Assembly: GCF_023336905.1 (NCBI RefSeq)
Contig: NZ_JAMBLS010000009.1
Coordinates: forward strand, 59,856 to 123,855
DNA: 64,000 nt
Direction of reading: 5' to 3'
Source: Bacteroides sp. ET71
GTDB taxonomy: Bacteria; Bacteroidota; Bacteroidia; Bacteroidales; Bacteroidaceae
A model generated the notes under the pieces. The model saw only the letters and a program-made list of their open reading frames with translations, had not been told where the DNA came from and did not search any database. This document shows, piece after piece, positions 1,024-55,470 of the stretch. Numbering within the stretch: position 1 is the stretch's first letter; each line of letters starts with the position of its first letter. Made by a program: the position numbers and the translations under genes.

Positions 1024-1104
1024 ATCATCATGCATGATGCCTAGGATCATCGTACATGATGCCTACTATCATCGTATATGATGATACCCATCATCGTGCA
1101 TGAT
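1024..1104. repeat. Array A: four 22-bp units with palindrome ATCAT-N5-ATGAT
   Basis: Units start at 1024, 1046, 1068 and 1090, an exact 22-bp period. Each holds a 15-bp core such as ATCATCGTACATGAT. The array lies between the -7 box of the HU-related gene (1118-1125, minus) and its start codon (959), so it should be transcribed as part of the 5' leader. It could be a set of protein-binding sites or a string of small RNA hairpins. The same core word returns in array B, and the same layout in array C. Confidence 0.9.
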
Positions 1105-1117
1105 GACTACCTGGATG

Positions 1118-1125
1118 CAAAGATA
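1118..1125 (-). promoter_or_regulatory. -7 promoter box of HU-related gene copy 1
   Basis: On the minus strand this reads TATCTTTG, a full match to the Bacteroides -7 consensus TAnnTTTG. It is 13 nt upstream of array A and about 160 nt upstream of the start codon. A clear -33 TTTG is not visible. Confidence 0.6.
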
Positions 1126-1284
1126 AGGTTTGCTCACAATATATGCAAGCCTTCCTTTCTCCGTCAGTCAACTTTGCATGTGTTTAACAACACATGCCCC
1201 CCTCTTTTTTACTGCCTGTTCGCTTCCTTGATGCTCCACAGCGATACGTGTTCGTTACGGTAGCCTTCTTCGGTGACCGGGCTT

Positions 1285-2604
1285 CTATTCAATGCCCGTA
1301 GAAAGTTGGTCATTTCCCGCTTTTTCCAAAGCTTGCTCCAGGTCGGCGAGCAAATCCTCGATATGCTCCGTACCGATGGAGAGCCGGACGGTGGAAGGGG
1401 TAATATGCTGGGCTGCCAATTCTTCGGATGAGAGTTGTGAGTGTGTGGTGGTGGCAGGATGGATGACGAGGCTTTTCACGTCCGCCACATTCGCCAATAA
1501 AGAGAAAATCTGCAACGAGTCGATAAACCGCCAGGCGGCGTCCTGCCCGCCTTTTATCTCGAAAGTAAAGATGCTTCCTCCTCCGTTCGGGAAATAGTGT
1601 TGATAGAGCGCATGGCAAGGATGCTCCGGCAGAGAAGGATGATTCACACGTTCCACTGCGGGATGACGGTGCAGGAATTCCACCACCTTGAGCGCATTAG
1701 CCACATGCCGTTCCACACGGAGCGAAAGTGTTTCCAGGCCTTGCAAGAGCAGAAAGGCATTGAGGGGAGCCAATGTCGCCCCGGTATCCCGCAGCAGCAC
1801 GGCACGAATGCGGGTGACGAACGCAGCCCGGCCTGCCACATTGGTGAAAACCGCCCCGTGATAGCAAGGTTCGGGATGTGCCAGCGTGGGGAACTTGTCC
1901 GGATATTCCGCCCAGGGAAACCTGCCTCCGTCTACAATCACACCGCCAAGCGTCGTGCCATGACCGCCGATAAATTTAGTGGCGGAATGCACCACAATGT
2001 CCGCCCCGTGTTCGATGGGACGGATGAGGAAAGGTGTGCCGAACGTATTGTCTATGAGGAGCGGTACATGATGGCGGTGAGCCACTTCTGACACGCCCCG
2101 GATATCCGTCACCTCCGAGTTGGGATTACCGAAAGTCTCGGCAAACACCACTTTCGTTTCCGGACGGATGGCAGCATCAAGGGCAATGAGGTCGTTTATG
2201 GAAACAATGGTATGGTTGATGCCCATAGCTGCTAACGTGTGTACAATCAAGTTATACGACCCACCGTACAGATTGTCTGCCGCCACGATATGATCGCCAG
2301 GACGTAGGATGTTCTGCAAGGCATAGGTTATCGCCGCGGCACCGGATGCCACGGCCAACGCAGCCACGCCGCCTTCCAAGGCTGCCATACGGGTTTCAAA
2401 CACGGCCTGTGTGTCATTGGTCAGACGGCCATAGATATTCCCCGCGTCACGCAGGGCAAAGCGGTCTGCCGCATGTTTCGCATCGCGGAATACATACGAA
2501 GTGGTCTGGTAAATGGGTACGGCGCGTGCGCCGGTCGTGGGGTCGGGCTGTTCTTGTCCCGCATGCAACTGTAATGTTTCAAAATGAAGTTTCGTATTAT
2601 CCAT
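1285..2604 (-). CDS. metY: O-acetylhomoserine sulfhydrylase (aminocarboxypropyltransferase)
   Basis: A 439-residue PLP enzyme of the Cys/Met-metabolism family. It makes homocysteine from O-acetylhomoserine and sulfide in the cytoplasm, and may also act on O-acetylserine. The start [12 protein letters not shown], the motif YGRLTNDTQ (about 58-66), the PLP-stacking segment NLYGGSYNL, the IDNTFGTPF strand (about 184-192), and [11 protein letters not shown] with the Schiff-base lysine near residue 210 are all present. The length and the longer C-terminus separate it from the shorter cystathionine synthases and lyases. It is divergent from an Lrp/AsnC regulator across 162 bp, so that regulator may control it, as Lrp proteins often control neighbouring amino-acid genes. 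The function call is firm; the substrate preference is not visible. Confidence 0.93.
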
Positions 2605-2664
2605 AATTCATAATTATTTGTTCCATGCAAAGGAATAAAACATAGGCAAATCACACAATATGTA

Positions 2665-2694
2665 TTTGGATTTTAGAAAATATATCTATTTTTG
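2665..2694 (+). promoter_or_regulatory. Promoter of the Lrp/AsnC gene
   Basis: A -33 TTTG at 2665-2668 and a -7 TATTTTTG at 2687-2694 are spaced by 18 bp, the arrangement of the Bacteroides primary promoter. It drives the regulator that starts at 2767. Confidence 0.65.
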
Positions 2695-2731
2695 CACTAA
2701 CTATTAGATGAAATGCATAGTAAAACAACCC

Positions 2732-2752
2732 ATTCTGCACATGTGGCAGAAT
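2732..2752. promoter_or_regulatory. Candidate Lrp operator (inverted repeat)
   Basis: ATTCTGC at 2732-2738 and GCAGAAT at 2746-2752 form 7-bp arms around a 7-nt centre. The site lies between the promoter and the start of the Lrp/AsnC gene, where an autoregulatory operator would be expected. The binding partner is inferred. Confidence 0.5.
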
Positions 2753-2766
2753 AATATTCTTCGGCA

Positions 2767-3228
2767 ATGGATACATTAGACAAAACCGATTTGCAGATTC
2801 TCCGTACTTTACAGGAGAATGCCCGATTGACTATGAAGGAACTTGCTGCCCGTGTCAGCCTGTCTTCCACTCCCGTATTCGAACGTCTCAAACGGTTAGA
2901 AACTAACGGATACATCAAGAAATATATCGCCGTGCTCGATGCGGAGAAACTTGGCAAGGGATTCGTTATCTTCTGTCACGTCAAGATGGCACGACTCAAC
3001 CGGGAAATAGCGCAGGAGTTCGCACAAATCATCCGTGGAATTCCGGAAGTAACCGAGTGCTATAACATCTCCGGCAGCTTTGACTATCTGCTCAAGATTC
3101 ATGCACCGGACATGAAATATTACCAGCAGTTCGTGCTGAACGTATTGGGAACCATTGAGCATCTGGGTTCGTTGGAAAGCGTTTTCGTGATGGATGAAGT
3201 CAAACACGAATATGGGGTGAATGTGTAA
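2767..3228 (+). CDS. Lrp/AsnC family transcriptional regulator
   Basis: A 153-residue regulator with the usual two parts. The N-terminal winged helix (about 1-60) begins LDKTDLQILRTLQENARLTM and includes the recognition segment LSSTPVFERLKRLE. The C-terminal RAM/ligand-binding domain (about 65-150) includes EVTECYNISGSFDYLLK, the typical signature with a conserved glycine pocket. Members bind DNA as dimers or octamers and sense amino acids. It is divergent from metY, which suggests a role in methionine or cysteine metabolism. An inverted repeat upstream of its start could be its own operator. The specific ligand cannot be read from the sequence. Confidence 0.92.
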   Translation: MDTLDKTDLQILRTLQENARLTMKELAARVSLSSTPVFERLKRLETNGYIKKYIAVLDAEKLGKGFVIFCHVKMARLNREIAQEFAQIIRGIPEVTECYNISGSFDYLLKIHAPDMKYYQQFVLNVLGTIEHLGSLESVFVMDEVKHEYGVNV

Positions 3229-3237
3229 CAGGAGAGC

Positions 3238-4167
3238 TCATTTCCGGTTTTCTTCCCAGAAACGGACTGCCCCGTCAATCCATCCTTCGGCACTCGTCCC
3301 GATGCCCAGTCCGAAACCGTGGCGCAAGTTCGGACACAGGTGAAACTCTGCCGGGATGCCGATGGCTTTCAGGGCTTCCGTGCGGCGGCGCATCGTGTTC
3401 GGATTGGCTATGCCGTCGTTGCTCCCCACCACCGAATAGGTAGGCGGATCTTGCCGGGTGTATTCACTATGTCCCGTATAAGCCATTACCACTGTGCGCG
3501 GACGGGGAAGCTGTGCCGCTCCGAAAGCCGCCGTCCCATAAGAACCGATATACGCCGCCATCCGAGCTCCTGCCGAACTGCCCCACACGGAATAGCCTGC
3601 CGTATCGACCTGCAACTCCGTGACGTGGCGGAAGATGTATTCGATGCCTGCAGCCAAGTCCTCGCACGCCGTCTGTGCGCTGCCCGTCTGATACTGGATG
3701 ACGAAGGCATTGTAACCCATCCGGCTCAACGCCAAGGCGTGTGGGAATCCCTCATGGATGGAGCCGACATACGAGAATCCGCCTCCGGGACAGATGACGG
3801 CGAAGGGTGCTCCGGGCCGTCCGCGGAAGAAAAACAGCCCGGCATCGCGCCGCCCCAAGTCGTAATAAATCTTGCGCCCAGCCGCCACGGAGTCTATCAT
3901 CTGGTTGATGTAGCCCACGCATCGGCCGGCATCGATATAATTATGGTAAGGCAATAGCCGAGCCACCTGCGAAAGTGGCATCGCCTCGTCATAGCCCCAT
4001 TCCAACGGAAGGATGTACTGCGCAAAACCCTCGAAAGCCGGGTGAGCCAGAACATCGGCAATGGTACTACGGGTAGTAAGATGTCCCGTTGCAGCGGATG
4101 GCGTGGATAAATTCACTTTGCAGAACGTGGCGAACAGCATGATGAACAGCACGACAGGGAAGTCCAT
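3238..4167 (-). CDS. Secreted alpha/beta-hydrolase (acetylesterase-like)
   Basis: A 309-residue alpha/beta hydrolase of the esterase/lipase (BD-FAE-like) group. I place the start at 4167 because MDFPVVLFIMLFATFCKVNL then forms a signal peptide; the longer frame to 4287 adds a cysteine-rich stretch with no family likeness. The oxyanion motif CPGGGFSYVG, the nucleophile elbow WGSSAGARM, the acid region VVGSNDGIANP and the histidine in LRHGFGLG are all visible. Likely substrates are acetylated glycans or small esters, but this is inference. It faces an AraC regulator gene, with the two starts 173 bp apart and divergent, so co-regulation is plausible. Confidence 0.8.
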   Translation of the reverse strand: MDFPVVLFIMLFATFCKVNLSTPSAATGHLTTRSTIADVLAHPAFEGFAQYILPLEWGYDEAMPLSQVARLLPYHNYIDAGRCVGYINQMIDSVAAGRKIYYDLGRRDAGLFFFRGRPGAPFAVICPGGGFSYVGSIHEGFPHALALSRMGYNAFVIQYQTGSAQTACEDLAAGIEYIFRHVTELQVDTAGYSVWGSSAGARMAAYIGSYGTAAFGAAQLPRPRTVVMAYTGHSEYTRQDPPTYSVVGSNDGIANPNTMRRRTEALKAIGIPAEFHLCPNLRHGFGLGIGTSAEGWIDGAVRFWEENRK

Positions 4168-4305
4168 ACACAGATTACGGATTGAAGCACCAATTTCGAC
4201 GAAGGGGAACCACCCGGCCGGCAACCATAAACCCATTTCACAGAATCTTATACCGATTTTACAGAAAGTCCCGCCGCAAGGCACCAACCTTTCGGAAGAT
4301 ATCCG

Positions 4306-4313
4306 TACATTTG
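4306..4313 (+). promoter_or_regulatory. -7 promoter box of the AraC-type gene
   Basis: TACATTTG matches TAnnTTTG and lies 27 nt upstream of the start at 4341. No clear -33 element is seen. Confidence 0.45.
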
Positions 4314-4340
4314 GGCAATCAAACTAAAATATGAACAAGT

Positions 4341-5240
4341 ATGGGTGAAATAGTGGATTTGAAGACGATACACGACTACAACAAGTTTCTCGGGCTGGAA
4401 ACGCTCAACCCGCTGGTGAGTTTCGTCGATTTCTCGAAAGTGGAGGTACTTCCACACCGCTGTAAATGCTTCGGCTTCTATGCCATCTTCTTGAAAGAAA
4501 AGATTCACGGGCCTATCACCTACGGGCGCAGCAAGTATGACTATCAGGAGGGCACGCTGGTGTTTATCGCCCCCGGGCAGGTGGGCGGTATCAATGACGG
4601 CGGCGAGACGTTGCATCCGCAAGGATATGCTCTGCTGTTCCATCCCGACCTCATCCGGGGTACATCGCTGGCGCGGAAGATGAAGGACTACACTTTCTTC
4701 TCCTACGAAGTGAACGAAGCCCTGCACATGTCTGAACGCGAACGGCAAACTGTCCTCAACTGCTTCAATGAGATAGAGGAAGAACTCCGACACTCCATTG
4801 ATAAACACAGCCGAAGCATTATCGTCTCCAACATCGAAGTCCTGCTCAATCATTGCCTCCGATTCTACGACCGCCAGTTCGCCACCCGCGAAGCCATCAA
4901 TTCAGATGTCCTCACCCGCTTTGAATCCTTGCTGAATGAGTACTTCGACTCCCCAAAGCCGGAAGAACTCGGGTTGCCATCCGTTGCCTGGTGTGCCGAC
5001 CAGCTCCACTTCTCCGCCAATTACTTTGGCGACCTGGTGAAGAAGCAGACAGGCAAGTCGGCCATCGAATACATCCATTCCGCCATCATCAGCCGAGTGA
5101 AAGACCGCCTGCTGGAGACGAACAAAACTGTCAGCGAGATTGCCTACGAAGTAGGTTTCCAATATCCGCATCACTTGAGTCGGCTGTTCAAGAAGGTAAC
5201 AGGGTGTACGCCGAATGAGTATCGGATACAGGGAAAATAA
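4341..5240 (+). CDS. AraC family transcriptional regulator
   Basis: A 299-residue regulator. The first 190 residues form a cupin-like effector/dimer domain (GTLVFIAPGQVGGIN is the barrel turn). The C-terminal 100 residues hold the two helix-turn-helix motifs: the first around LHFSANYFGDLVKKQTGK, and the second in VSEIAYEVGFQYPHHLSRLF, followed by the AraC signature GCTPNEYR. It is divergent from the secreted esterase at 3238-4167 and may regulate it. Downstream lie array B and a strong bidirectional terminator shared with xylE. The effector is unknown. Confidence 0.9.
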   Translation: MGEIVDLKTIHDYNKFLGLETLNPLVSFVDFSKVEVLPHRCKCFGFYAIFLKEKIHGPITYGRSKYDYQEGTLVFIAPGQVGGINDGGETLHPQGYALLFHPDLIRGTSLARKMKDYTFFSYEVNEALHMSERERQTVLNCFNEIEEELRHSIDKHSRSIIVSNIEVLLNHCLRFYDRQFATREAINSDVLTRFESLLNEYFDSPKPEELGLPSVAWCADQLHFSANYFGDLVKKQTGKSAIEYIHSAIISRVKDRLLETNKTVSEIAYEVGFQYPHHLSRLFKKVTGCTPNEYRIQGK

Positions 5241-5283
5241 GTGTATTACTTTAAGCATAAAACCATAGGGTAGTATTCACCAA

Positions 5284-5342
5284 ATCATCGTATATGATTC
5301 TATAAATCATCGTACATGATTCCCATAATCATCGTATATGAT
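5284..5342. repeat. Array B: three 22-bp units, same word as array A
   Basis: Units start at 5284, 5306 and 5328, again exactly 22 bp apart. Cores are ATCATCGTATATGAT, ATCATCGTACATGAT and ATCATCGTATATGAT, the same word as array A 4.2 kb away. Unlike A and C, this array lies between two converging genes (AraC and xylE) and has no visible promoter next to it. Confidence 0.9.
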
Positions 5343-5425
5343 TTTATACTACGTAGCAATGGGTAATGACTTCAAGTAACATAGACCAACCTTGACCCTC
5401 CTACGTGACCTTATAACCACAGCAT

Positions 5426-5479
5426 ATACAAAGGATGCCACTCCGTAGTAGGTTTAACACAGAGTGGCATCCTTTGTAT
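5426..5479. terminator. Bidirectional terminator hairpin between araC-type gene and xylE
   Basis: Arms at 5426-5443 and 5462-5479 are perfect 18-bp reverse complements (ATACAAAGGATGCCACTC) with an 18-nt loop. The position between converging 3' ends suits a shared terminator for the xyl operon and the AraC gene. There is no long U tract. Confidence 0.75.
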
Positions 5480-5494
5480 CTCACGCACAACAAG

Positions 5495-6973: not shown

Positions 6974-7015
6974 GATACTAAATGGTTGATAGTTATGAAT
7001 TAATAATAACAAAAA

Positions 7016-7061
7016 GAAGGGGCGAAAACCGTAGGAAAACTCCCCTCATCTTCGCCCCTTC
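7016..7061. promoter_or_regulatory. Intercistronic hairpin between xylA and xylE
   Basis: GAAGGGGCGAA (7016-7026) and TTCGCCCCTTC (7051-7061) are perfect 11-bp arms around a 24-nt loop. It sits in the 97-bp gap inside the operon, with an A-run just outside that reads as U on the transcript. It could be a partial terminator lowering xylE expression or an mRNA-stabilising stem. Confidence 0.6.
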
Positions 7062-7070
7062 CTCATAGGG

Positions 7071-12109: not shown

Positions 12110-12140
12110 TTGCATATATTAGAAGAACTCGTTACCTTTG
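12110..12140 (+). promoter_or_regulatory. Promoter of HU-related gene copy 2
   Basis: TTG at 12110-12112 and TACCTTTG at 12133-12140 are 20 bp apart, a good -33/-7 pair. Array C begins 14 nt after the -7 box, nearly the same distance (13 nt) as at HU copy 1. Confidence 0.65.
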
Positions 12141-12154
12141 TGGCCGAAGGTAGA

Positions 12155-12235
12155 ATCATTGCCGATGATTCCCAGAATCATTGCCGATGATTCCTAGAAT
12201 CATTGCCGATGTTTCCTAGAATCATTGCCGATGAT
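12155..12235. repeat. Array C: four 22-bp units with palindrome ATCAT-N5-ATGAT
   Basis: Units start at 12155, 12177, 12199 and 12221, exactly 22 bp apart. The core is ATCATTGCCGATGAT; the third unit has one change (ATGTT). It occupies the presumed 5' leader of the HU-related gene, starting 14 nt after the -7 box. The spacer word (TGCCG) differs from arrays A and B (CGTAC/CGTAT) while the arms are the same. Confidence 0.9.
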
Positions 12236-12335
12236 TCCTGGGACCCTATCTAGGACATCCCGCAACAGTAAGTTACATAACCCGGCCGAAGATGCGACCC
12301 TTCCGCACCGAGGCCATAACCAAGGAGGACCCGAT

Positions 12336-12734
12336 ATGGCATTTTTCCGTAAACAAAAACTGAACGGCAAGTGGTACGCACGCGCCGTCAACCTGATGAG
12401 ACCCGCCACGACCGACGAAGTGGCCGACGAACTGGCCCTGATGTCCACCGTCAGCCGGGGCGACACCTACGCCGTGCTCTGCAACCTGGGCAAAGTCATG
12501 GGACGCATGATGGCCGACGGACGCTCGGTCAAACTCAAAGGCGTAGGCACCTTCTACCTCACCTGCCAGACCAAAGGCAAGGGCACCGACACCCCAGAGG
12601 AACTGAAACCGCAGCTAATCACCGACGTCCGCGTGCGCTTCATCCCCGAATACGAGCGCGGACAAAACCACAAAGTGACACAACGCGCCCTCATCCATTC
12701 CTCCCTGAAGTGGGTCGACGCCGACGACATATAA
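12336..12734 (+). CDS. HU-related DNA-binding protein, copy 2
   Basis: A 132-residue HU-related protein, more diverged than copies 1 and 3. It starts MAFFRKQKLNGKWYARAV and shares STVSRGDTYAVLCNLGKVM, VKLKGVGTFYLTCQ, GTDTPEELKP and RFIPEYERGQNHKV with its paralogues. The start at 12336 is supported by AAGGAGG nine bases upstream, a rare strong Shine-Dalgarno site for this lineage; the frame's earlier ATG at 12225 lies inside the repeats. The gene is expressed through a leader with four palindromic units. It sits between fabD and the rel gene and is probably transcribed alone. Confidence 0.85.
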   Translation: MAFFRKQKLNGKWYARAVNLMRPATTDEVADELALMSTVSRGDTYAVLCNLGKVMGRMMADGRSVKLKGVGTFYLTCQTKGKGTDTPEELKPQLITDVRVRFIPEYERGQNHKVTQRALIHSSLKWVDADDI

Positions 12735-17197: not shown

Positions 17198-17239
17198 GTT
17201 AATGATTAATGGTTAATGGTCAATGGTTAATGGTTAATA
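17198..17239. repeat. Heptamer repeat (GTTAATG)x6 overlapping a stop codon
   Basis: Six 7-bp units (GTTAATG, ATTAATG, GTTAATG, GTCAATG, GTTAATG, GTTAATA) fill the gap between the HAD gene and panB. The stop codon of the HAD gene (17220-17222 on the minus strand) and its last residues come from the repeat. Slippage here would change the C-terminus and the spacing to panB. Confidence 0.7.
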
Positions 17240-19371: not shown

Positions 19372-20148
19372 TCAATCGGAGCCGGCGGCCGGCAGGACTT
19401 GCAGGGGCGTGTCGTCCACGTAGCGGTTGGCTTGCCTGAGGGGCGCGGGGCCGCTGGTGCACTGGGTGGTGACGGCCAGGCGGTAGGTGCCCGCAGGCAG
19501 TTCGTCGGGCAGGCGGAGGCCGAGGCGGTTGCGGGCGTTCCAGAGGGGTGCGATGTCGTCGGGCGCGAAGCGGTGGACGAGGTCCCCCGTGTCGTAGTCC
19601 AGCAGTTCGACGCCGCGCTGGGGCAGGTCGCCGTTCATCAGCAGGTAGCGCCCGCGCAGGTAGACGTATCCGCCGGGCGTGAGCCGCTCGTTGTGCGTGC
19701 CGCTGGCCAGGTCGAAGATGTCCGTCACGCGCGGCCCCTGTGTGCGCCCCAGGTCTTCGTGGAACAGGGGGTTCTTGAGGGCTTCCTTCAGGCGGGGGCC
19801 GGGGGCGAAGGAGGCGGTGGCCTCGTTTGCGGCGCGGGCCAGTGGGTTGGCGCGGTCGGGGTTCCACGTGCCGGTGACCGAGGGGGTCAGCCGGCCCAGC
19901 GGGGTGTCGACGGCAAATCCGTCCACGAGGGCTTCGCACGTAGCGTCTATCAGATACTCTGCCGCCAGTTGCAAGGTACGGGCGTCGAACATGGTGCCGC
20001 GGCCTGCCGCCCAGCGGGCCAGCGAAGGCAGGTCGACCGTGCCGCGCAGCACGACGCGGGGCATGTCGGGCACGCGGGAGGCTTGGCCGGGCAGGTAGCT
20101 TTTGCGCAAGCTCACGTGCCATACGGGGCGTTTGTCTCTACTACTCAT
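19372..20148 (-). CDS. HU-like DNA-binding domain protein with DUF4469 domain, copy 1
   Basis: A 258-residue protein of a Bacteroidetes family that fuses an HU-like N-terminal domain (about 1-125) to a DUF4469 domain with a beta-sandwich look (about 150-250). The N-terminal part includes MPRVVLRGTVDLPSLARWAA, LQLAAEYLIDATCEALVDGF and TPLGRLTPSVTGTW. The C-terminal part includes LTPGGYVYLRGRYLLMNGD, then PAGTYRLAVTTQ. The second copy at 33354-34136 has the same order but diverged sequence. The gene is very GC-rich. A -7 box TATATTTG lies upstream on the minus strand (20176-20183), and array D lies beyond it. The biological role of the family is not established. Confidence 0.75.
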   Translation of the reverse strand: MSSRDKRPVWHVSLRKSYLPGQASRVPDMPRVVLRGTVDLPSLARWAAGRGTMFDARTLQLAAEYLIDATCEALVDGFAVDTPLGRLTPSVTGTWNPDRANPLARAANEATASFAPGPRLKEALKNPLFHEDLGRTQGPRVTDIFDLASGTHNERLTPGGYVYLRGRYLLMNGDLPQRGVELLDYDTGDLVHRFAPDDIAPLWNARNRLGLRLPDELPAGTYRLAVTTQCTSGPAPLRQANRYVDDTPLQVLPAAGSD

Positions 20149-20271: not shown

Positions 20272-20400
20272 GAATTACAGTTTAAATCCTTCTGAATTGT
20301 AATGATAACATATTCGTATTACAGTTGTCATACGGAGATATTTAAGTTGTAATCGCAAGGTATTTAAGTTGTAATTTATTTGTATTTAAGCTGTAATAAG
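20272..20400. repeat. Array D: five to six 22-bp units, word TATTTAAGTTGTAAT
   Basis: Units at 20339, 20361 and 20383 share TATTTAAGTTGTAAT with one change (AAGCTG in the last). A diverged unit at 20317 (TATTACAGTTGTCAT) and weaker ones at 20294 and 20272 keep the 22-bp step. The first units carry ATTACAG, roughly the reverse complement of the later CTGTAAT, so the array reads partly as inverted halves. It lies between divergent genes (HU/DUF4469 and a winged-helix protein). I see nothing else firm in the 461-bp gap apart from promoters. Confidence 0.75.
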
Positions 20401-20568
20401 ACCTGTGAAGTAGTGGGGTCACGTGACTGTGGCCTACATAGGGGGAATGGCTGTGTCTGCCATGAGACCCGTGTGTGTAAAGTGCAGATGCCCGCTCCAT
20501 CCTGCCCCGCAGGCTTATGGATGGGAAGAAAAAGCGCCCATGCATATGACAGTTTGAAAAAGAATCCG

Positions 20569-26984: not shown

Positions 26985-27022
26985 TGTCTAATTTTTAGAC
27001 AACAGTGTCTATTTTTTAGACA
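26985..27022. repeat. Array E: two 21-bp units, palindrome TGTCTA-N5-TAGACA
   Basis: TGTCTAATTTTTAGACA (26985-27001) and TGTCTATTTTTTAGACA (27006-27022) are 17-bp palindromes 21 bp apart. The pair is framed by GGG/CCC, so the whole can also fold as one longer stem. It lies centrally between divergent genes (ABC permease and metallophosphoesterase) and resembles a pair of operators in phase on the DNA helix. Confidence 0.8.
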
Positions 27023-27097
27023 CCCGAGGACAGAAATACCCGTCATAAAGGATACTAAATAAGGTATATATATTATCAATGGTTAGATAGAAAACTC

Positions 27098-33353: not shown

Positions 33354-34136
33354 ATGGCTAAAAACATCCTGAAAGCATGGCTGGTGGACAACACCGTGAC
33401 CACCGACGACAAGACCGACAAGATTTTCCAACTGGAAAGCACCCGCACGGCCGACCTGGCATATATCATCGACCGCATGGTGGCGAAGAACCCCGGCGTG
33501 CTGCGCACGACGATGGAGATGATAGTGAAGCTGCACAACGAAGTGGTGGCCGAAGAAGTGCTCAACGGCGTCAGCGTCAACACCGGACTGTTCCGCGCCG
33601 TGGCCCAGTTCCGCGGCACGGCGGTGAACGACGCGTGGGACCCGAAGAAAGACTCCGTCTACGTCTCCTTCACCCAAGGCAAGACGCTGCGTGAGAGCAT
33701 CCAGGACACCACCGTCGAAGTCCTCGGCGACCGCCCCACGAAGTTCTACATCGGCAGCACCAACGACGTGGCCACCAAGGCGACCGACAACAGCGCCACC
33801 GCCGGGCGCAACCTCACGCTCTACGGCAAGAACATCCTGCCCGCGGGCGACGACCCCTCCGTCGGCGTCACCCTGACCAACACGGAGACGCAGGCCGTCA
33901 CGCGGCTGACGGAAGACATGATTGCCGTGGCCGAACCCTCGCGACTGGTCATCCTCATACCCTCCGACCTGGACGACGGCGAATACACGCTGACCGTCAC
34001 CACGCAGTACAGCGGTGGAGGGAAACTACGCTCTACACCGCAAAGCACCTCGCAAACCATCTACATCGGCGGCGCACCTCAAACTCCCGGCAATGGCGAA
34101 GATGATGACGACAGTGGCCAAGGCACCTTCGGATAA
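33354..34136 (+). CDS. HU-like DNA-binding domain protein with DUF4469 domain, copy 2
   Basis: A 260-residue relative of the protein at 19372-20148. The HU-like part (about 1-125) begins MAKNILKAWLVDNTVTTDD and includes ADLAYIIDRMVAKNPGVLR and EEVLNGVSVNTGLFRAVAQF. The DUF4469 part (about 150-245) includes NLTLYGKNILPAG, then LVILIPSDLDDGEYTLTVTT, an Ig-like beta sandwich pattern. The tail is acidic (EDDDD). No signal peptide is seen, so it is probably cytoplasmic. Array F begins 11 bp after its stop codon. The role of the family is not established; DNA binding is inferred from the HU-like fold. Confidence 0.8.
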   Translation: MAKNILKAWLVDNTVTTDDKTDKIFQLESTRTADLAYIIDRMVAKNPGVLRTTMEMIVKLHNEVVAEEVLNGVSVNTGLFRAVAQFRGTAVNDAWDPKKDSVYVSFTQGKTLRESIQDTTVEVLGDRPTKFYIGSTNDVATKATDNSATAGRNLTLYGKNILPAGDDPSVGVTLTNTETQAVTRLTEDMIAVAEPSRLVILIPSDLDDGEYTLTVTTQYSGGGKLRSTPQSTSQTIYIGGAPQTPGNGEDDDDSGQGTFG

Positions 34137-34146
34137 AAACAAGGCC

Positions 34147-34230
34147 GTCCAAACATCTTGGACAGGGCGTCCAAACATCTTGGACAAAGGCGTCCAAGCA
34201 TCTTGGACAGGGTGTCCAAACATCCTGGAC
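34147..34230. repeat. Array F: four units of GTCCAA-N5-TTGGAC, period 22-23 bp
   Basis: Units start at 34147, 34169, 34192 and 34214. Each is a 17-bp palindrome GTCCAAACATCTTGGAC or a one-base variant (AAGC in unit 3; CATCCTGG in unit 4). The array directly follows the HU/DUF4469 stop codon, so it would lie in that gene's 3' untranslated region. From 34231 to the next promoter (34440) I see no further structure. Confidence 0.9.
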
Positions 34231-34439
34231 AGAGCGGGGCATAATGAATACGGCACGCAGGCGACACCGGCGGAACAGATTTCCAAACACCTATTCCACT
34301 GCGAATCAACGACATATAATCAGCGGTCATCAGTCGCATCAGCGTCATCTGCGTGCCATTCACCTTCAGCCTCCCCTCCCGCGCCCTTCCCTTTTCCATT
34401 TTTTCACACCCGAAACGCCCGAAATTCCCCGAGAAAGCC

Positions 34440-34750: not shown

Positions 34751-34758
34751 ACAGGGAA

Positions 34759-34885
34759 CAAGGGGACGAGGAGACGAGTTAACAAGGGGACGAGTTAACA
34801 AGTCAACAAGGAGACAAGTTAACAAGGCCACAAGGAACTTCCACCCCATCACCCACCCCCTCGTCAACTTGTCAACTCGTCAACT
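34759..34885. repeat. Octamer repeat with inverted second half, copy 3
   Basis: At least eight consecutive octamers fit NNNACRAG (GAGACGAG, TTAACAAG, GGGACGAG, TTAACAAG, TCAACAAG, GAGACAAG, TTAACAAG, GCCACAAG) between 34759 and 34837. The reverse-complement word returns at 34860-34884 (CTCGTCAA, CTTGTCAA, CTCGTCAA). It ends just before a 17-bp direct repeat (CTAACAAACTTAAAAA twice, about 34884-34916) that leads into the ferredoxin gene. Confidence 0.8.
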
Positions 34886-34942
34886 AACAAACTTAAAAAC
34901 TAACAAACTTAAAAACTCATAAACAAAAAGGAGAACGTAATT

Positions 34943-39343: not shown

Positions 39344-39394
39344 ATATACTTATTTATTAGAGGGTTAAACAGTCTCGTTTCTTCGGGATACTTT

Positions 39395-39540
39395 GGACAT
39401 AGGCGTCCACGTTCCCTGGACATAGGCGTCCACGCTCTCTGGACATAGGCGTCCACGCTCCCTGGACATAGGCGTCCACACTCTCTGGACATAGGCGTCC
39501 ACGCTCTCTGGACAAGGTTGCCCGGACATTGGCATCTATC
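39395..39540. repeat. Array G: five 23-bp units with GGAC-N6-GTCC, plus remnants
   Basis: Units GGACATAGGCGTCCACGCTCTCT or close variants start at 39395, 39418, 39441, 39464 and 39487, exactly 23 bp apart. Partial units (GGACAAGG at 39510, GGACATTGGC at about 39524) follow. The array lies 52 bp upstream of the lipoprotein start (minus strand). No TAnnTTTG box was found for that gene, so the array may contain or replace its promoter. Confidence 0.9.
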
Positions 39541-42266: not shown

Positions 42267-42382
42267 CGCCTTTTCAGGTAATATCAAACTAAAAAGGAGA
42301 AGAAATATGCAATATAAAGCACTTGAATACCTACCCCAAGTTATATCTCCAGACTATTAGATTCTGTTTAAAATTCATGTTC

Positions 42383-42472
42383 CTGTCATCCCGAGCACAG
42401 TCGAGGGACCTCACTACGCGCCTGAAAAGTATTAGTGAGATGTTTCGACTTCGCTTCGCTCAACATGACAGA
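42383..42472. repeat. REP-like palindromic element 2
   Basis: TGTCATCCCGAGCACAGTCGA...CTCACTA is mirrored as TTAGTGAGATGTTTCGACTTCG...CTCAACATGACA. It shares the core and the right arm GAGATGTTTCGACTTCGCT...GCTCAACATGACAGA with element 1 at 20997-21190 but lacks that element's outer A+T-rich arms. It lies between the divergent kinase and porin genes. Confidence 0.8.
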
Positions 42473-42517
42473 ATGATAGCTGTTTGTCTTTATGATACAT
42501 CCCCACCCTCACGTTCT

Positions 42518-42577
42518 TTTGACGGGGGCGTCAAACATCCTTTTAACGGGGGCGTCAAACGTCCTTTTAACGGGGTC
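42518..42577. repeat. Array H: three 24-bp units, palindrome TTTGACG-GGGG-CGTCAAA
   Basis: Units at 42518-42535 and 42542-42559 are 24 bp apart; a third, partial one begins at 42566. The first is a perfect 7-bp-arm palindrome. The second has TTTAACG on the left and CGTCAAA on the right. The array lies about 90 bp upstream of the porin -7 box. Together with REP element 2 it explains most of the 448-bp kinase-porin gap. Confidence 0.85.
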
Positions 42578-46480: not shown

Positions 46481-46484
46481 TTCC

Positions 46485-49098: not shown

Positions 49099-49227
49099 AA
49101 AAGCTATCGGACTAATTTCTTGCAAAGGTACGGGCATTGCTCCTATTTTGTTCTTCCGGGAAACAATAATTGCGGGCAAATTAATACAATTTCGCACGCC
49201 GACGCCCCTATTCTACCGAAAATGGCG

Positions 49228-49235
49228 TATCTTTG
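49228..49235 (+). promoter_or_regulatory. -7 promoter box of the DUF1573 gene
   Basis: TATCTTTG matches TAnnTTTG, 39 nt upstream of the start at 49275. Confidence 0.6.
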
Positions 49236-49274
49236 TCGCCATCGATGAAAAAGAATCTAAAAAATAAAGGAAAT

Positions 49275-49670
49275 ATGAGAAAAGCAGTTATGTGTCTGAT
49301 GCTCTTGTTGCTGAGCATCGGTTATGCATCGGCGCAAGCCAAGGCAGAAATCAAGTTTGACAAAACCACGCACGATTTCGGCACGTTTTCAGAAGAAGAC
49401 CCCGTGGTCACCTGCACGTTTACGTTTACCAACATCGGCAAGGCGCCGCTTGTCATCCACCAGGCCATCGCCTCGTGCGGATGCACCGTCCCCAAATATA
49501 CGCAAGAACCGGTGCTGCCGGGCAAAACGGGTACGCTGACGGTGACTTACAACGGGACGGGACGCTATCCCGGCCACTTCCGCAAGTCCATCACGTTGCG
49601 CACCAATGCCGAGACTGAAGTGCTCCGCCTTTACATTGAGGGAGAGATGAAGGCCAAAGGTGAAAAATAG
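49275..49670 (+). CDS. Secreted DUF1573 protein
   Basis: A 131-residue exported protein. The signal peptide is AVMCLMLLLLSIGYASAQ. The mature part is one DUF1573 domain, an Ig-like beta sandwich, with the family core KTTHDFGTFSEEDPVVTCTF and IASCGCTVPKYTQEPVLPGK (conserved CGC), and ending in VLRLYIEGEM. The family is abundant in Bacteroidetes; its function is not established. The start at 49275 begins the signal peptide and is preceded by AAAGGAAAT. Array I lies downstream, before the OPT gene. Confidence 0.85.
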   Translation: MRKAVMCLMLLLLSIGYASAQAKAEIKFDKTTHDFGTFSEEDPVVTCTFTFTNIGKAPLVIHQAIASCGCTVPKYTQEPVLPGKTGTLTVTYNGTGRYPGHFRKSITLRTNAETEVLRLYIEGEMKAKGEK

Positions 49671-49768
49671 CCGCCTTGCATGCCGCACGGAAAGAGGTTG
49701 TCCGACCCACACATCAGACAGCCTCTTTTCGTTGAACTTACCCTAAAGGATTCCGTAAAAGCGTTCTA

Positions 49769-49968
49769 CGTTATAAGGGAGAAACATCTTCCGCATAGTA
49801 AGGAGGAAACCTTCCGCATAGTAAGGAGGAAACCTTCCGCATAGTAAGGAGGCAGACCGCCGCATAGTAAGGAGGCAGACCGCCGCATAGTAAGGAGGCA
49901 GACCGCCGCATAGTATAGGTGGCAGACTACCACATAGTATAGGTGGGGGTGTACCACTCGGATAGGTG
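49769..49968. repeat. Array I: about nine 23-bp units (CGCATAGTAAGGAGG)
   Basis: Clear units start at 49792, 49815, 49838, 49861, 49884, 49907 and 49930, all 23 bp apart, with degenerate ones at 49769 and 49953. The arms change together along the array: CCTT...AAGG in the first units and CCAC...GTGG in the last two, as if the pairing were kept. It fills the gap between the DUF1573 and OPT genes; no TAnnTTTG box is seen for OPT, so its message may run through the array. Confidence 0.9.
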
Positions 49969-50013
49969 GAAGCATCCCGGAAAAGAATATTCAACCATTT
50001 AACAAGATAACCC

Positions 50014-52005: not shown

Positions 52006-52014
52006 GACGGAACA

Positions 52015-52896
52015 ATGAAACACATCCTTTCAACACTTACATTATTGCTTATGAGCAGCCTGCTACTTCATGCACAAACACCGGTCGAAATCCCCCTGTG
52101 GCCCCAAGGCGCCCCTACCGACAACGGGATGCGCGGCACGCAAGAAGACCTGAACGGCGGTGAGGAAGCCTTCATCCCCCACCCGTCCATCACCATCTAT
52201 CCGGCTTCCCGCCCCAACGGGATGGCCATCATCATGTGTCCCGGCGGCGGATACGCCCGACTGGCCCTGGGGCACGAAGGGCATGACATGGCGGCGTGGT
52301 TCAACGCACAAGGCATCACCTACGTCGTGCTGAAATACCGCATGCCCAACGGACACCGGGAAGTGCCCCTGTCTGATGCCGAACAAGCCATCCGCATCGT
52401 CCGGCAAAAAGCCTCAGAATTTGGAATCAATCCCAACCGGGTAGGCATCATGGGAGCATCGGCGGGCGGACACCTGGCCGCTTCGCTGGCCACGCTTTAC
52501 AGCAGCGACGAGACTCGCCCCGACTTTCAGATACTCTTCTATCCCGTCATCTCCATGAAACCGGGAATCACCCACGAAGGCTCGCGCTTCAACCTGCTGG
52601 GCGTCGACGTCCCGGCAGAATGGGAAGACCACTTCTCACTGGAGAAGCAAGTCACCGACCGGACGCCTCAAGCCTTCATCATGCTGTCTTCGGACGACGG
52701 GACGGTCATCCCCCAGAACAGCATCGACTATTACAGCGCACTGAACAAGCACCACATCCCTGCCTCTCTGCACATCTATCCGACAGGAGGACATGGCTGG
52801 GGCTTTGGCGACGGTTTCATCTATAAACGTCAATGGACCGGAGAGCTGGAAAAATGGTTAAAAGAAGGGCTTACGTTTACAACAACCAATAATTAA
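52015..52896 (+). CDS. Secreted alpha/beta-hydrolase (acetyl-xylan-esterase-like)
   Basis: A 293-residue exported hydrolase. The signal peptide is ILSTLTLLLMSSLLLHAQ. The oxyanion motif is MCPGGGYARLALGHEG, the nucleophile elbow GASAGGHLAAS, the acid region MLSSDDGTVIP, and the histidine lies in TGGHGWGFGD. This is the BD-FAE/acetyl-xylan-esterase-like pattern. It is nine bases after the OPT gene. It is related to, but clearly different from, the esterase at 3238-4167. Acylated plant glycans are a plausible but unproven substrate. Confidence 0.85.
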   Translation: MKHILSTLTLLLMSSLLLHAQTPVEIPLWPQGAPTDNGMRGTQEDLNGGEEAFIPHPSITIYPASRPNGMAIIMCPGGGYARLALGHEGHDMAAWFNAQGITYVVLKYRMPNGHREVPLSDAEQAIRIVRQKASEFGINPNRVGIMGASAGGHLAASLATLYSSDETRPDFQILFYPVISMKPGITHEGSRFNLLGVDVPAEWEDHFSLEKQVTDRTPQAFIMLSSDDGTVIPQNSIDYYSALNKHHIPASLHIYPTGGHGWGFGDGFIYKRQWTGELEKWLKEGLTFTTTNN

Positions 52897-52920
52897 ATAA
52901 TCATACTTAACAGAACAATC

Positions 52921-53712
52921 ATGAGAGTTATTACAAAAAAAAGTATTACTGCTTTCTGTGCATTGGCAATGTTATCCGTTTCTTATGCACAAGAAACAGA
53001 CAACGACATTATGCTGGCTAATGGAATTAAGTATCTGGGAACTCCCTATGCAGCACACACATTAGACACAAATGCCACGGAAGAACTTATCTTGAATTGC
53101 GACGAGGTAGACTGCACAACCTTCATAGAATATGTATTGGCAGAATCACTTTGCCCAATCATCAATGGTGACATTTCTGAAGGGACCTTTGCCCAGAAGT
53201 TGCAAATGATACGTTACCGTGATGGAAAGATAGATGGATACACTTCACGCCTGCATTATATTACAGATTGGATTAACAACGGCGTGCGAAATGGATTCTT
53301 GGAAGATATAACAGCCGAAAAGAGCAAAGAAACGCAAGTAGTCCAGCTCTCTTATATGAGTTCACATCCACAAGCTTACAAGCAACTGGCCAACTCTCCC
53401 CAAGAAGTTGAAAAGATAAAACAAATAGAAAAAGCTCTTTCCGGACAAACAGTGCATTATCTCCCCAAAAACAAATTACCCTATAATGGACTGAGTTGGA
53501 TAAAAAACGGCGACATCATCGCCATAACGACCAATATTCCAGGATTGGATGTGGCACACATGGGATTGGCTTTCTACGCAGACGGAAAACTGACCCTGAT
53601 TCACGCATCATCTTCAGACGGAAAAGTTGCAGCATCTACCATAGCTCTGTCACAAATGCTTAAAAACAATGCCAACTGGACCGGCATCCGAGTTTTACGC
53701 ATGAAAAAATAA
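52921..53712 (+). CDS. DUF1460 amidase-like exported protein
   Basis: A 263-residue exported protein with the DUF1460 (N-acetylmuramoyl-L-alanine amidase-like) domain, a papain-like NlpC/P60 relative. The signal peptide is ITAFCALAMLSVSYAQ. The likely catalytic cysteine is in LNCDEVDCTTFIEYVLAES, and the likely catalytic histidine in DVAHMGLAFYADGKLTLIH. Bacteroides homologues cut peptide links in peptidoglycan. It lies 24 bp after the esterase gene on the same strand and could be part of that transcript. Codon use is more A+T-rich than upstream. Confidence 0.82.
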   Translation: MRVITKKSITAFCALAMLSVSYAQETDNDIMLANGIKYLGTPYAAHTLDTNATEELILNCDEVDCTTFIEYVLAESLCPIINGDISEGTFAQKLQMIRYRDGKIDGYTSRLHYITDWINNGVRNGFLEDITAEKSKETQVVQLSYMSSHPQAYKQLANSPQEVEKIKQIEKALSGQTVHYLPKNKLPYNGLSWIKNGDIIAITTNIPGLDVAHMGLAFYADGKLTLIHASSSDGKVAASTIALSQMLKNNANWTGIRVLRMKK

Positions 53713-53745
53713 AGATTGAAACAGAGACGGATTCCGTAAACAGAG

Positions 53746-54603
53746 GTGTCTATGGAATCCGCCTCTCATGTATTGCCACATATGGTTCAAGAGGGCTTCC
53801 AAATCTACAAACCTTGCAAAGCACTGCAATCTTACGTCAGGTATTATTGGATATTCAAAAGCAAGCAACCATTGAATGTTCCCACCTTTCCCATAGGCTG
53901 TCCTCAAATCATTTTCCATAAGAAAACCCCACTTTACATACCAGAGCTAAAGAGTTATCAATCTGCATTGAGCGTCAGCGGTCAAGTGAATTATCCTGCT
54001 CATTTGTCTTCAGGCGGAAATACGAATATGATAACCATTGTGTTCCAACCTTATACCTTGGCTGCTTTCCTCCATCTGCCCATAAGCCTATTGCACAATC
54101 AAGAGATTTCCGGTTACGACCTTGAGAATAAACAATTAAACGAATTAGCCACACGTATTTTTGATTGTGAAGACGACCTCCTTAGCATCGGCATCATTGA
54201 ACAATGGCTACTAACCACAATCACTAACACGCCAAACAAGAAAGTAACATACAATCTAAATAGGATAACCGCTGCCCTAAATGAATTACTGACAAAACCA
54301 GGAACCTCTGTCAACAACTTGGCTGACATCGCTTGCTTAAGTAAAAAACAATTTGAACGTTTCTTCTATGCTACCGTAGGAAGTCTGCCCAAAGAATATG
54401 CCCGTATAGTGCGGTTTCAAAAATCTTTGAAACTACTGCAACACTGTTCAGAGAATATTAATTTTGCGCAAATAGCCTATCAAAGCGGTTACGCAGACCA
54501 ATCACATTATATCAGGGAGTTCAAACTATTCAGCGGCTACACTCCATCTGCATTGTTGAATGTTTGTACACCTTATTCAGATTTGTTTACCGATCCGGCA
54601 TAA
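53746..54603 (+). CDS. AraC family transcriptional regulator 2
   Basis: A 285-residue regulator with an N-terminal sensing domain (about 1-165) containing YVRYYWIFKS and FPIGCPQIIFHKKTPL, as in AraC proteins with a DUF6597-like part. The C-terminal HTH pair starts near VNNLADIACLSKKQFERFF and continues NFAQIAYQSGYADQSHYIRE with the signature FSGYTPSAL. It is followed by the CAT-family acetyltransferase after 76 bp; the regulator may control that gene. The gene is A+T-rich. The signal is unknown. Confidence 0.87.
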   Translation: MSMESASHVLPHMVQEGFQIYKPCKALQSYVRYYWIFKSKQPLNVPTFPIGCPQIIFHKKTPLYIPELKSYQSALSVSGQVNYPAHLSSGGNTNMITIVFQPYTLAAFLHLPISLLHNQEISGYDLENKQLNELATRIFDCEDDLLSIGIIEQWLLTTITNTPNKKVTYNLNRITAALNELLTKPGTSVNNLADIACLSKKQFERFFYATVGSLPKEYARIVRFQKSLKLLQHCSENINFAQIAYQSGYADQSHYIREFKLFSGYTPSALLNVCTPYSDLFTDPA

Positions 54604-54640
54604 TGTCCCTTTTATTCTATACATAAGCCAAAAAGCAGTT

Positions 54641-54648
54641 TACTTTTG
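54641..54648 (+). promoter_or_regulatory. -7 promoter box of the CAT-family gene
   Basis: TACTTTTG matches TAnnTTTG and lies 31 nt upstream of the start at 54680. Confidence 0.5.
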
Positions 54649-54679
54649 CAAAACGTTCAACCTAAAAAGCAAAAGTAAA

Positions 54680-55321
54680 ATGAAAGAAGTAAATCCTCAA
54701 GAAACGACACGTGCATATGCTTTTGACATGTGGATGAATGTCCCGATGCCTATGGTTACTTTTTTTAGGACTCTGGATGTAAGCCGGGTTCTTCAAGCAA
54801 GCCGGCGAAAAGGCTGTAAGTTCAACATGTTGATGTGCTGGTGCATCGGACGGGCAGCAAGCAGTATCAAAGAGTTCTACATGCTGCCCGTAGGCCAAAA
54901 ACTAATGCAATACGACAGTCTTGCCATATGCACCATCATCGCCAATCGGAAAGGCGAAATAAATTCCTGTGACATTCCCTTCTCGGACAATGTGCAACAA
55001 TTCAACCATGATTATATGGCATTGACAAAACGAGCGATTGAAAATTGCAAAAACCATGAATTGACAGAAAGCATGGTCATTGGCACATCAGCTCTCGCCC
55101 ATTACCCAATAGACGGTGCAGTAGGGATGTATAGCGGGATTTTCAACAATCCATTTTTGATTTGGGGCCAATACCGGTCTTGCCTATGGAAAAAAACATT
55201 AAACATATCTTTCCAGTTTCACCACGTCCAAATGGATGGAGCACATGCAGCACATTTCTTGGACAAACTACAAAGCGAAATCACCAATTTGCACAAGCAT
55301 CTTCCTCGTTTTCTGCCATAA
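54680..55321 (+). CDS. Chloramphenicol acetyltransferase-family protein
   Basis: A 213-residue acyltransferase of the CatA family, normal length. The catalytic motif is FQFHHVQMDGAHAAHF, with His 181/182 and Asp 186 matching the HHxxxDG motif of trimeric CATs. Other family-like parts are MCWCIGRAASSIKEFYM and IWGQYRSC. Chromosomal relatives are common in Bacteroidetes and many may not give resistance, so a resistance role is unproven. The start at 54680 follows a -7 box; the frame upstream runs into the AraC gene. An array of CTCTA-N3-TAGAG units follows. Confidence 0.82.
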   Translation: MKEVNPQETTRAYAFDMWMNVPMPMVTFFRTLDVSRVLQASRRKGCKFNMLMCWCIGRAASSIKEFYMLPVGQKLMQYDSLAICTIIANRKGEINSCDIPFSDNVQQFNHDYMALTKRAIENCKNHELTESMVIGTSALAHYPIDGAVGMYSGIFNNPFLIWGQYRSCLWKKTLNISFQFHHVQMDGAHAAHFLDKLQSEITNLHKHLPRFLP

Positions 55322-55394
55322 GATATTAAAGGGCTCTAGCAAACAGTTTGATTCTAGCGAAAAAGAAAGCGCCACTGTATCAGTGTTTTTTCAT

Positions 55395-55470
55395 CTTTAG
55401 GCTAGAGATATACAACTCTAACCTAAAGATGGCAATCTCTAGGATAAAGATTAGCATCTCTAACCTAGAG
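55395..55470. repeat. Array J: four 21-bp units, word CTCTAACCTAAAG
   Basis: Units start at 55395, 55416, 55437 and 55458, exactly 21 bp apart. The last is a 5-bp-arm palindrome (CTCTA-ACC-TAGAG); the others keep it in part (CTTTAGGCTAGAG, CTCTAACCTAAAG, CTCTAGGATAAAG). It lies between the CAT-family gene and a small doubtful gene. Confidence 0.85.

What the first reader, a model, noticed from the sequence alone, without database searches (positions are those of the whole stretch)
1024..55470. Locus-specific tandem arrays with a 21-24 bp period in at least ten intergenic regions
Arrays A (1024), B (5284), C (12155), D (20272), E (26985), F (34147), G (39395), H (42518), I (49769) and J (55395) have 2-9 units each, with periods 22, 22, 22, 22, 21, 22/23, 23, 24, 23 and 21. 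Most units hold a short palindrome, but the word differs between loci; only A, B and C share arms (ATCAT/ATGAT). A two-helical-turn spacing would put sites on one face of DNA, or give a series of equal RNA hairpins. They are not all in the same place relative to genes (leaders, 3' ends, divergent and convergent gaps). I know of no described system of this kind; that it is one system is inference.
Basis: partly seen in the sequence, partly recalled or inferred. Interest (0 to 1): 0.9.

Follow-up and report, generated by a model that had tools for sequence, protein, structure and literature searches.

The report
HU-protein genes with private tandem arrays
Gut Bacteroides carry many extra copies of a DNA-packaging protein gene (HU), and most of these copies sit beside their own short, evenly spaced DNA repeat array whose word often recurs elsewhere in the genome, which suggests a set of parallel protein-and-site systems.

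Summary
The arrays are real: 70 intergenic arrays of period 21-24 in 864 kb of the genome against 0.35 in dinucleotide shuffles, peaking at 22 bp. The words are not purely locus-specific; many form dispersed families. The key lies in the neighbours: window arrays A, C, D and F lie beside HU-superfamily genes. Of 34 such genes in the genome 25 have an adjacent array: HU-HIG genes (PF18291/TIGR01201) upstream (13 of 22), HU-DNA_bdg/DUF4469 genes 2-26 bp after the stop codon (8 of 12). In named Parabacteroides, Bacteroides, Phocaeicola and Prevotella records 8 of 11 HU genes have arrays, with other words; the three without look mobile (judged afterwards). 25 of 62 arrays away from HU genes carry the word of an HU-linked array (1.2 in shuffles). 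REP/RAYT, MITE and RNA-hairpin readings are not supported. Best reading: each array is a row of DNA sites for its neighbouring HU paralog, with outlying arrays as further sites. Linkage is shown; binding and function are inferred. Words and proteins did not covary significantly among paralogs, and 37 of 62 remote arrays match no HU word in hand.

The parts
1023..1111 (.). Array A, 22 bp x 4, dyad CATCAT-N5-ATGATG; cis array of the HU-HIG gene at 558-1025(-), in its probable leader
   Evidence: TRF score 99; adjacency; word family at further loci
558..1025 (-). HU-HIG gene (PF18291, TIGR01201 HU_rel); the start is probably Met23 (window 959), where its two window paralogs begin
   Evidence: Pfam 2e-16; NCBIfam 2.3e-25; alignment A1
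1118..1125 (-). TATCTTTG, fits TAnnTTTG (the Bacteroides -7 promoter box; name recalled); array A starts about 7 bp downstream of it
   Evidence: sequence
5282..5348 (.). Array B, 22 bp x 3, AATCAT-N5-ATGATT; remote array of the A/C family
   Evidence: 97% identical to the sister species, flanks 70%
12133..12140 (+). TACCTTTG, candidate -7 box directly before array C
   Evidence: sequence
12151..12239 (.). Array C, 22 bp x 4, GAATCAT-N5-ATGATTC; cis array of the HU-HIG gene at 12336
   Evidence: 99% identical in the sister species, flanks 78%
12336..12734 (+). HU-HIG gene (PF18291, TIGR01201)
   Evidence: Pfam 6.6e-15; NCBIfam 2.1e-24
19372..20148 (-). HU-DNA_bdg + DUF4469 gene
   Evidence: PF14734 4e-14, PF14848 2e-7; PF14848 match in genome search
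20273..20404 (.). Array D, six units of exactly 22 bp, upstream of the HU gene at 19372-20148(-)
26987..27028 (.). Array E, two units of 21 bp, TGTCTA-N5-TAGACA
   Evidence: read directly; found by TRF in the sister species
33354..34136 (+). HU-DNA_bdg + DUF4469 gene; homologue of solved structure PDB 4fmr
   Evidence: PF14848 3.9e-38, DUF4469 7.7e-27; 4fmr E 2.9e-106
34142..34236 (.). Array F, 22-23 bp x 4, GTCCA...TGGAC, starting 6 bp after the last base of the HU gene 33354-34136
   Evidence: adjacency from coordinates
39394..39514 (.). Array G, 23 bp x 5.3, TGGAC-N6-GTCCA; remote; one unit only in the sister species
42516..42575 (.). Array H, 24 bp x 2.5, TTTGACG-N4-CGTCAAA; remote; absent in the sister species
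49768..49950 (.). Array I, 23 bp, 6.4 units by TRF, about 8 by eye, with changing arms; remote
55393..55471 (.). Array J, about 21 bp, 2.7 units by TRF, 4 by eye, CTCTA/CTTTAG dyads; remote
59168..59551 (-). Third HU-HIG gene of the window, no array seen here; its likely counterpart in the sister species has one upstream
   Evidence: Pfam 9.1e-15

Best explanation
Many of these arrays are rows of DNA sites for an expanded set of HU-superfamily proteins. Each HU paralog has its own unit, usually a dyad of about 17 bp plus a short spacer, repeated every 21-24 bp beside its own gene. In HU-HIG genes the row lies upstream, often between promoter and start codon, so dimers filling it would repress or tune the gene's own transcription. 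In HU-DNA_bdg/DUF4469 genes the row starts right after the stop codon. Copies of the same word elsewhere, often just behind stop codons, would be further sites where that paralog shapes or closes off DNA between genes. Shown: the arrays, their period, their linkage to HU genes in two families of Bacteroidales, and words shared between HU-linked and remote arrays. Inferred: that each HU protein binds its neighbouring word, that binding is cooperative along the row, and what it does to expression or nucleoid structure.
For: HU genes were chosen by profile, not by arrays. PF18291: 13 of 22 have an array in the upstream gap (12 by script, L193 added) against 68 of 720 other genes, P 2.8e-8. PF14848: 8 of 12 have an array starting 2-26 bp after the stop (7 by script, F added) against 24-27 of 720 genes within 35 bp, P 8e-8 to 5e-9. 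Sister species: 8 of 12 untruncated HU genes, 9 with L138, P 5e-4 for 8. Named records: 8 of 11 HU genes, with other words. 25 of 62 remote arrays match an HU-linked word, 1.2 in shuffles. A TAnnTTTG box within 60 bp before the array in 5 of 14 upstream arrays, P 0.005. Compensated arm changes 10, against 0-5 when partners are slid. No G.U excess.
Against: No binding data. Among paralogs word similarity does not follow protein similarity significantly (Spearman 0.06-0.08, P 0.07-0.23), and one close pair (L194 and G058 L040:8758, score ratio 0.92) has unrelated words. 37 of 62 remote arrays match no HU word in hand. 9 of 34 HU genes have no adjacent array counted. Arrays occur in stretches of other genomes where my HU profile found no HU gene at all (G015, G057, G031, G060 and 20 further genomes of the genus). 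One slid control (-3) reached 5 compensated changes. Over 21 sites arrays as a whole are only slightly more conserved than flanking gap DNA (89 and 84%). HU proteins are usually thought of as weakly sequence-specific (recalled). A row after a stop codon is not an ordinary operator.
Confidence: 0.62

Rival explanations
1. Neutral minisatellites. Quasi-palindromes stimulate slippage on the lagging strand, producing tandem copies, and template switching perfects the arms; the arrays have no function.
For: Copy number and words turn over: G 5.3 units against 1, L117:13295 and F replaced, I rebuilt. Some arrays are less conserved than their flanks. Only two weak sub-threshold SbcD matches in this genome, so a hairpin nuclease may be missing.
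Against: It does not predict linkage to HU genes, or the same linkage with other words in another family. It gives no reason for a fixed 21-24 period. Several arrays are far more conserved than their flanks, e.g. C 99% against 78%, B 97% against 70%.
Confidence: 0.15
2. RNA elements. The arrays act in transcripts (leader of HU-HIG, 3' end of HU-DNA_bdg) as rows of hairpins bound by the HU protein or by other factors.
For: HU-linked arrays often lie where the HU transcript should be: after a candidate -7 box (5 of 14) or right after the stop. Remote arrays in codirectional gaps lean towards the upstream stop (mean fractional position 0.31, n 53).
Against: In the arms G.T is not commoner than A.C on the transcribed strand (13 and 20 in codirectional arrays; 14 and 27 in HU-linked arrays). 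The median unit hairpin is only -1.7 kcal/mol. 11 of 70 arrays lie in divergent gaps.
Confidence: 0.15
3. Mobile palindromic repeats: REP elements moved by a RAYT, or a MITE such as BrickBuilt.
For: Words recur at unlinked places. P. gingivalis has a MITE with a 23-nt tandem repeat (PMC4596501, abstract and passages).
Against: No Y1 transposase match in this 99.6% complete genome, though 45 of 60 genomes of the order have one. Flanks of nine loci of the A/B family in two genomes show no shared ends by eye.
Confidence: 0.04

Closest known systems
REP sequences and their RAYT genes
   Same: A protein gene flanked by its own palindromic repeat, with copies of the same word dispersed in intergenic DNA (general picture recalled; passages of PMC3733652 seen).
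   Different: Here the gene is an HU-superfamily gene, the repeats are tandem rows with a 21-24 bp period, and no RAYT is found in the genome.
BrickBuilt MITE of Porphyromonas gingivalis (PMC4596501)
   Same: Bacteroidales; 23-nt units in tandem without spacers; always intergenic (abstract).
   Different: BrickBuilt is one family with leader and tail subunits and inverted-repeat ends; here many words, no shared flanks seen, linked to HU genes. Whether BrickBuilt lies near HU genes was not tested.
Plasmid iterons and partition sites (recalled)
   Same: Tandem sites of about 20-22 bp beside the gene of the protein that binds them.
   Different: Dozens of parallel sets in one genome, often dyad units, HU-type protein; no replication or partition gene was looked for.
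HU-HIG and HU-DNA_bdg families (PF18291, PF14848; TIGR01201); PDB 4fmr
   Same: The proteins here are members by profile.
   Different: No array is mentioned in the short family descriptions returned by the tools; a 2017 paper on novel HU clades (recalled) is not held.
Tandem heptamer repeats in prokaryotes (PMC6344855, passages)
   Same: Widespread intergenic tandem repeats of unexplained period.
   Different: Period 7; a separate class that is also present in this genome.

Membership tests
HU-HIG (PF18291) / HU_rel (TIGR01201) | Profile score over curated cut-off | tested here: met
   Window genes 558-1025, 12336-12734, 59168-59551: TIGR01201 85-89 bits, cut-off 68.6; PF18291 55-61 bits, cut-off 26.2. 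PF18291 also rings in control genomes such as E. coli, so it catches HU/IHF relatives in general. L181 is under the TIGR01201 cut-off (56.3).
HU-DNA_bdg (PF14848) with DUF4469 | Profile score over cut-off; Ig-like DUF4469 behind the HU domain | tested here: met
   33354-34136: 130.7 and 93.6 bits; 19372-20148: 31.5 and 52.8 bits
REP/RAYT | Y1 tyrosine transposase gene in the genome | tested here: not met
   PF01797: 0 matches in G000 at E<=0.001
MITE (BrickBuilt type) | Common terminal inverted repeats or flanks at all copies | tested here: not met
   A/B-family and C-family loci share the units but not the flanks outside orthologous pairs (by eye, 9 and 6 loci)
Iteron or ParB-parS-like site row | Protein encoded beside the row binds it | not testable with these tools
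   Linkage shown; no binding data
RNA hairpin series | G.U tolerated in arms on the transcribed strand; stable hairpins | tested here: not met
CRISPR | Unique spacers of regular size between identical repeats | tested here: not met
   In the arrays printed, units adjoin with spacers of a few bases
CRISPR | cas genes nearby | not tested
   no cas search was made

The most novel reading that the evidence does not exclude
Bacteroidales run dozens of parallel, mutually insulated chromosome-marking systems: each duplicated HU protein has evolved its own tandem word, marks its own gene with a row of it, and addresses a private set of intergenic rows, so that protein and word diversify together like a growing code.
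Probability: 0.4. Interest if true: 0.95.

Novelty: categorically new. Interest (0 to 1): 0.88.

Why it matters
HU is the textbook packaging protein that binds DNA with little regard to sequence. Dozens of HU paralogs, most next to a private tandem site, would mean that Bacteroidales have turned HU into a family of addressed DNA-binding proteins. It would explain a large part of the intergenic repeats of these gut bacteria, give a function to HU-HIG and DUF4469 proteins, and make a natural case for studying how proteins and sites change together. The prediction is directly testable with one purified protein and two DNA fragments.

Tried and rejected
REP/RAYT: no Y1 transposase in the genome. 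MITE: no shared flanks by eye. Phage origin: 3 exact hits of a 17-mer in viral contigs, not followed up; HU-like hits in five phage records were listed but not read. Rfam: only a tRNA in the window. RNA hairpins: no G.U excess, weak hairpins. Two-turn phasing as the cause of the period: not tested. Word-protein covariation among paralogs: tested, not significant. Literature: searches on Bacteroides tandem repeats gave nothing on point except BrickBuilt; for HU with arrays, one search was too loose to use, one search listed seven papers seen as a listing only, none, one unrelated. That it is undescribed rests on these and on recall. Structure prediction was never accepted.

Rows dropped or added by hand: arrays at L180 were not counted as HU-linked (taken as part of the TGTCATCC-type element), though one search lists them, so its own totals are 13 upstream and 16 any of 23; L197 is counted as HU-DNA_bdg, not HU-HIG; L193's array is found by TRF on one strand only and is counted; array F was added because the scripts keep its 45-bp row (one search gives both counts); two HU genes of G058 cut by ends (L160, L167) are left out, and L138 is left out of 8 of 12 for the reason given for L180. 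L211 and L213 have no TRF row of this period; they were found by eye, then tested against mononucleotide shuffles. The split of the 11 named HU genes into chromosome-like and mobile-looking was made after seeing the arrays. L195 has a stop inside.
Full report
WHAT IS THERE. The window (64 kb, 50.7% G+C) is part of contig 9 of a 3.63-Mb draft genome; 158 genomes of its genus were searched. The closest relative found, G058, matches contigs of Candidatus Bacteroides merdipullorum, a metagenome-assembled genome. Nine of the ten reported arrays are recovered by TRF, the tenth by reading. In 863,855 bp of this genome (24%) there are 111 arrays in intergenic gaps, 70 of them with period 21-24 (39 at 22) in 62 of 444 gaps of 40 bp or more. 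Dinucleotide shuffles of the gaps give a mean of 0.35 such arrays (20 shuffles). The autocorrelation of gap DNA has sharp peaks at 22, 23, 24 and their multiples; coding DNA gives 3.6, 0.5 and 13.4 per 10 kb at these three lags. The density of arrays, wherever they lie, is 10.6 per 100 kb here and 10.8 in G058, 8-15 in three further relatives and 4 in another. Intergenic ones number 2.8 per 100 kb in stretches of 20 other genomes of the genus and 1.7 in stretches of 20 genomes of other families of the order, two of these short and fully masked. E. coli K-12, 200 kb, has three arrays, of periods 19, 20 and 21.

ANATOMY. Many units are a dyad with arms of 5-7 bp around 3-7 bp, plus a spacer, for example GACACTT-agcac-AAGTGTC. 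The per-array test is weak with such short units: 27.5% of 80 intergenic arrays reach P<=0.05, and 26% of 23 arrays classed as coding; mean best score 4.6 and 3.9 against 3.5 shuffled. Arrays can keep a rigid 22-bp register while the word changes along them, as in L026, L013 and window D. Adjacent units show 10 compensated double changes in the arms against 0, 0, 1, 1, 1 and 5 when the partner column is slid (81 arrays with arms of 5 or more). G.T pairs are not commoner than A.C on the transcribed strand, so the dyads look like DNA features, not RNA stems.

FAMILIES AND TURNOVER. Of 179 arrays in six genomes 101 fall into 28 word families, most with one period each. At 21 sites with both flanks in hand in G058, 16 have a TRF array of period 20-25 there too; the five without are B (whose three units are seen by alignment), G (one unit), H (absent), L024:4066 and L026:2865. 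One of the 16, L117:13295, has a different word. F, compared separately, also has another word in G058. Some arrays are much more conserved than their flanks (B 97 and 70%, C 99 and 78%, L106 96 and 72%), others less (L026:7138 57 and 75%, L122:12637 64 and 85%); over all 21 sites the figures are 89% in arrays and 84% in flanks. In gaps between codirectional genes arrays lie nearer the upstream stop (mean fraction 0.31, n 53).

THE LINK TO HU GENES. Pfam scans of 20 genes near the window arrays showed HU-superfamily genes beside A, C, D and F. Matches in the whole genome were then taken by profile. PF18291 (HU-HIG): 23 places; PF14848 (HU-DNA_bdg): 12 over cut-off. One place (L197) is on both lists and is counted with PF14848. 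Among 22 HU-HIG genes 13 have an array in the upstream gap and two downstream (L175, L176); seven have none counted (L180, L183, L186, L191, L192, L195, L196), among them one with an internal stop and two of about 90 aa, the size of ordinary HU. Among 12 HU-DNA_bdg genes eight have an array starting 2-26 bp after the last base of the gene (F 6, L024 10, L124 19, L197 26, L199 4, L200 13, L201 18, L202 2), two have one upstream (D, L203), two none (L198, L204). Other genes of this genome: 68 of 720 have an array upstream and 53 of 720 downstream; 24 of 720 have one starting within 35 bp of the stop, 27 if rows of period 43-47 are let in. Fisher P: 2.8e-8 upstream for HU-HIG; behind the stop for HU-DNA_bdg 8e-8 for 7 of 12 against 24, 5e-9 for 8 of 12 against 27; 2.8e-12 for any adjacency, 25 of 34. 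With upstream gaps of at least 100 bp only, the background is 18.8% of 329 genes against 13 of 22 HU-HIG, which includes L180 and lacks L193.

INDEPENDENT TESTS. In G058 eight of 12 untruncated HU genes have an adjacent array, nine with L138. In a genome of another family, G187, the only HU gene of this type found in the order stretches has two arrays upstream. My profile found no HU gene in the stretches of G015, G057, G031, G060, of 20 further genomes of the genus, of four genomes outside the order, or in E. coli, so these say nothing on linkage. In plasmid-database records found by tblastn with three HU proteins of this genome (two further queries had no match) all 11 hits were read. Eight, from Parabacteroides distasonis, Bacteroides finegoldii and Phocaeicola massiliensis records of one strain collection (probably chromosome contigs), have arrays: five HU-HIG upstream with period 21-22, three HU-DNA_bdg 5-22 bp behind the stop with period 23, with other words (L211 and L213 first seen by eye). 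Three have no convincing array: a Prevotella nigrescens and a B. finegoldii record with smalltalk or amidase genes nearby, and plasmid pCACC737_3 (weak, P 0.03). That these three are mobile-type was concluded afterwards.

REMOTE ARRAYS. Of 62 arrays in the 864 kb not counted as beside an HU gene (array F had dropped out of the list; the 62 include purine-rich arrays), 25 match the word of an HU-linked array at a level that shuffles reach 1.2 times (23 of 62 before the further HU-DNA_bdg loci were added). 37 remain unassigned. Among paralogs, protein similarity does not predict word similarity overall; close pairs mostly share words (L179 and L193; orthologues of C, D and L024) and one does not (L194 and L040:8758).

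HOW IT PROBABLY WORKS. HU proteins are two-fold symmetric dimers (established knowledge), which fits dyad units. In some HU-HIG genes the array follows a TAnnTTTG box, the Bacteroides -7 element (recalled), by 7-19 bp: 5 of 14 arrays within 60 bp, chance 0.086 each; L185 has its box behind the arrays, and L178, L179 and L184 have none. Where the box is used, a filled array would sit at the transcription start. The simplest mechanism is autoregulation by the paralog's own dimers filling the row, with remote rows as its other sites. For HU-DNA_bdg genes the row behind the stop may nucleate binding near the gene, or act on the transcript's end; this is open. A structure exists for a homologue of the F-linked protein (4fmr, E 2.9e-106), named there an uncharacterized hypothetical protein.

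STATUS. Existence of the arrays and HU linkage: shown. Cognate binding: likely, not shown. Function: inferred. Literature: no description found in the held library with the searches named; subscription papers are mostly not held.

Noticed in passing
window 42382-42473: Dispersed element CCTGTCATCCCGAGCACAGTCGAGGGACCT..., with many copies in G058 and G031; seen near arrays at H, L024 and L026.
   Followed up: partly
window 17198-17238: Heptamer array (GTTAATG)5.9 with short matches in four related genomes; periods 7 and 14 are a second repeat class.
   Followed up: no
window 34757-34930: Purine-rich octamer-based arrays (GGGACGAGTTAACAAG, periods 8/16/24), a third class, conserved in the sister species and dispersed (family of 8).
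   Followed up: partly
L107:3059, L121:6387, L122:17329, L011:1291: A 22-bp family of 13 arrays around CCGAACAAGAGCC without an evident dyad, in both sister species; no HU gene was tied to it here.
   Followed up: no
window 59168-59551: HU-HIG gene without a visible array in this genome, although its likely counterpart in G058 (L040:15017) has one upstream: a loss or a gain.
   Followed up: partly
L207: In P. distasonis an HU-HIG gene with its array lies next to rpsL-rpsG-fusA.
   Followed up: no
whole genome G000: SbcD matches are weak only (two, below the TIGR00619 cut-off), so a canonical hairpin nuclease may be missing.
   Followed up: no
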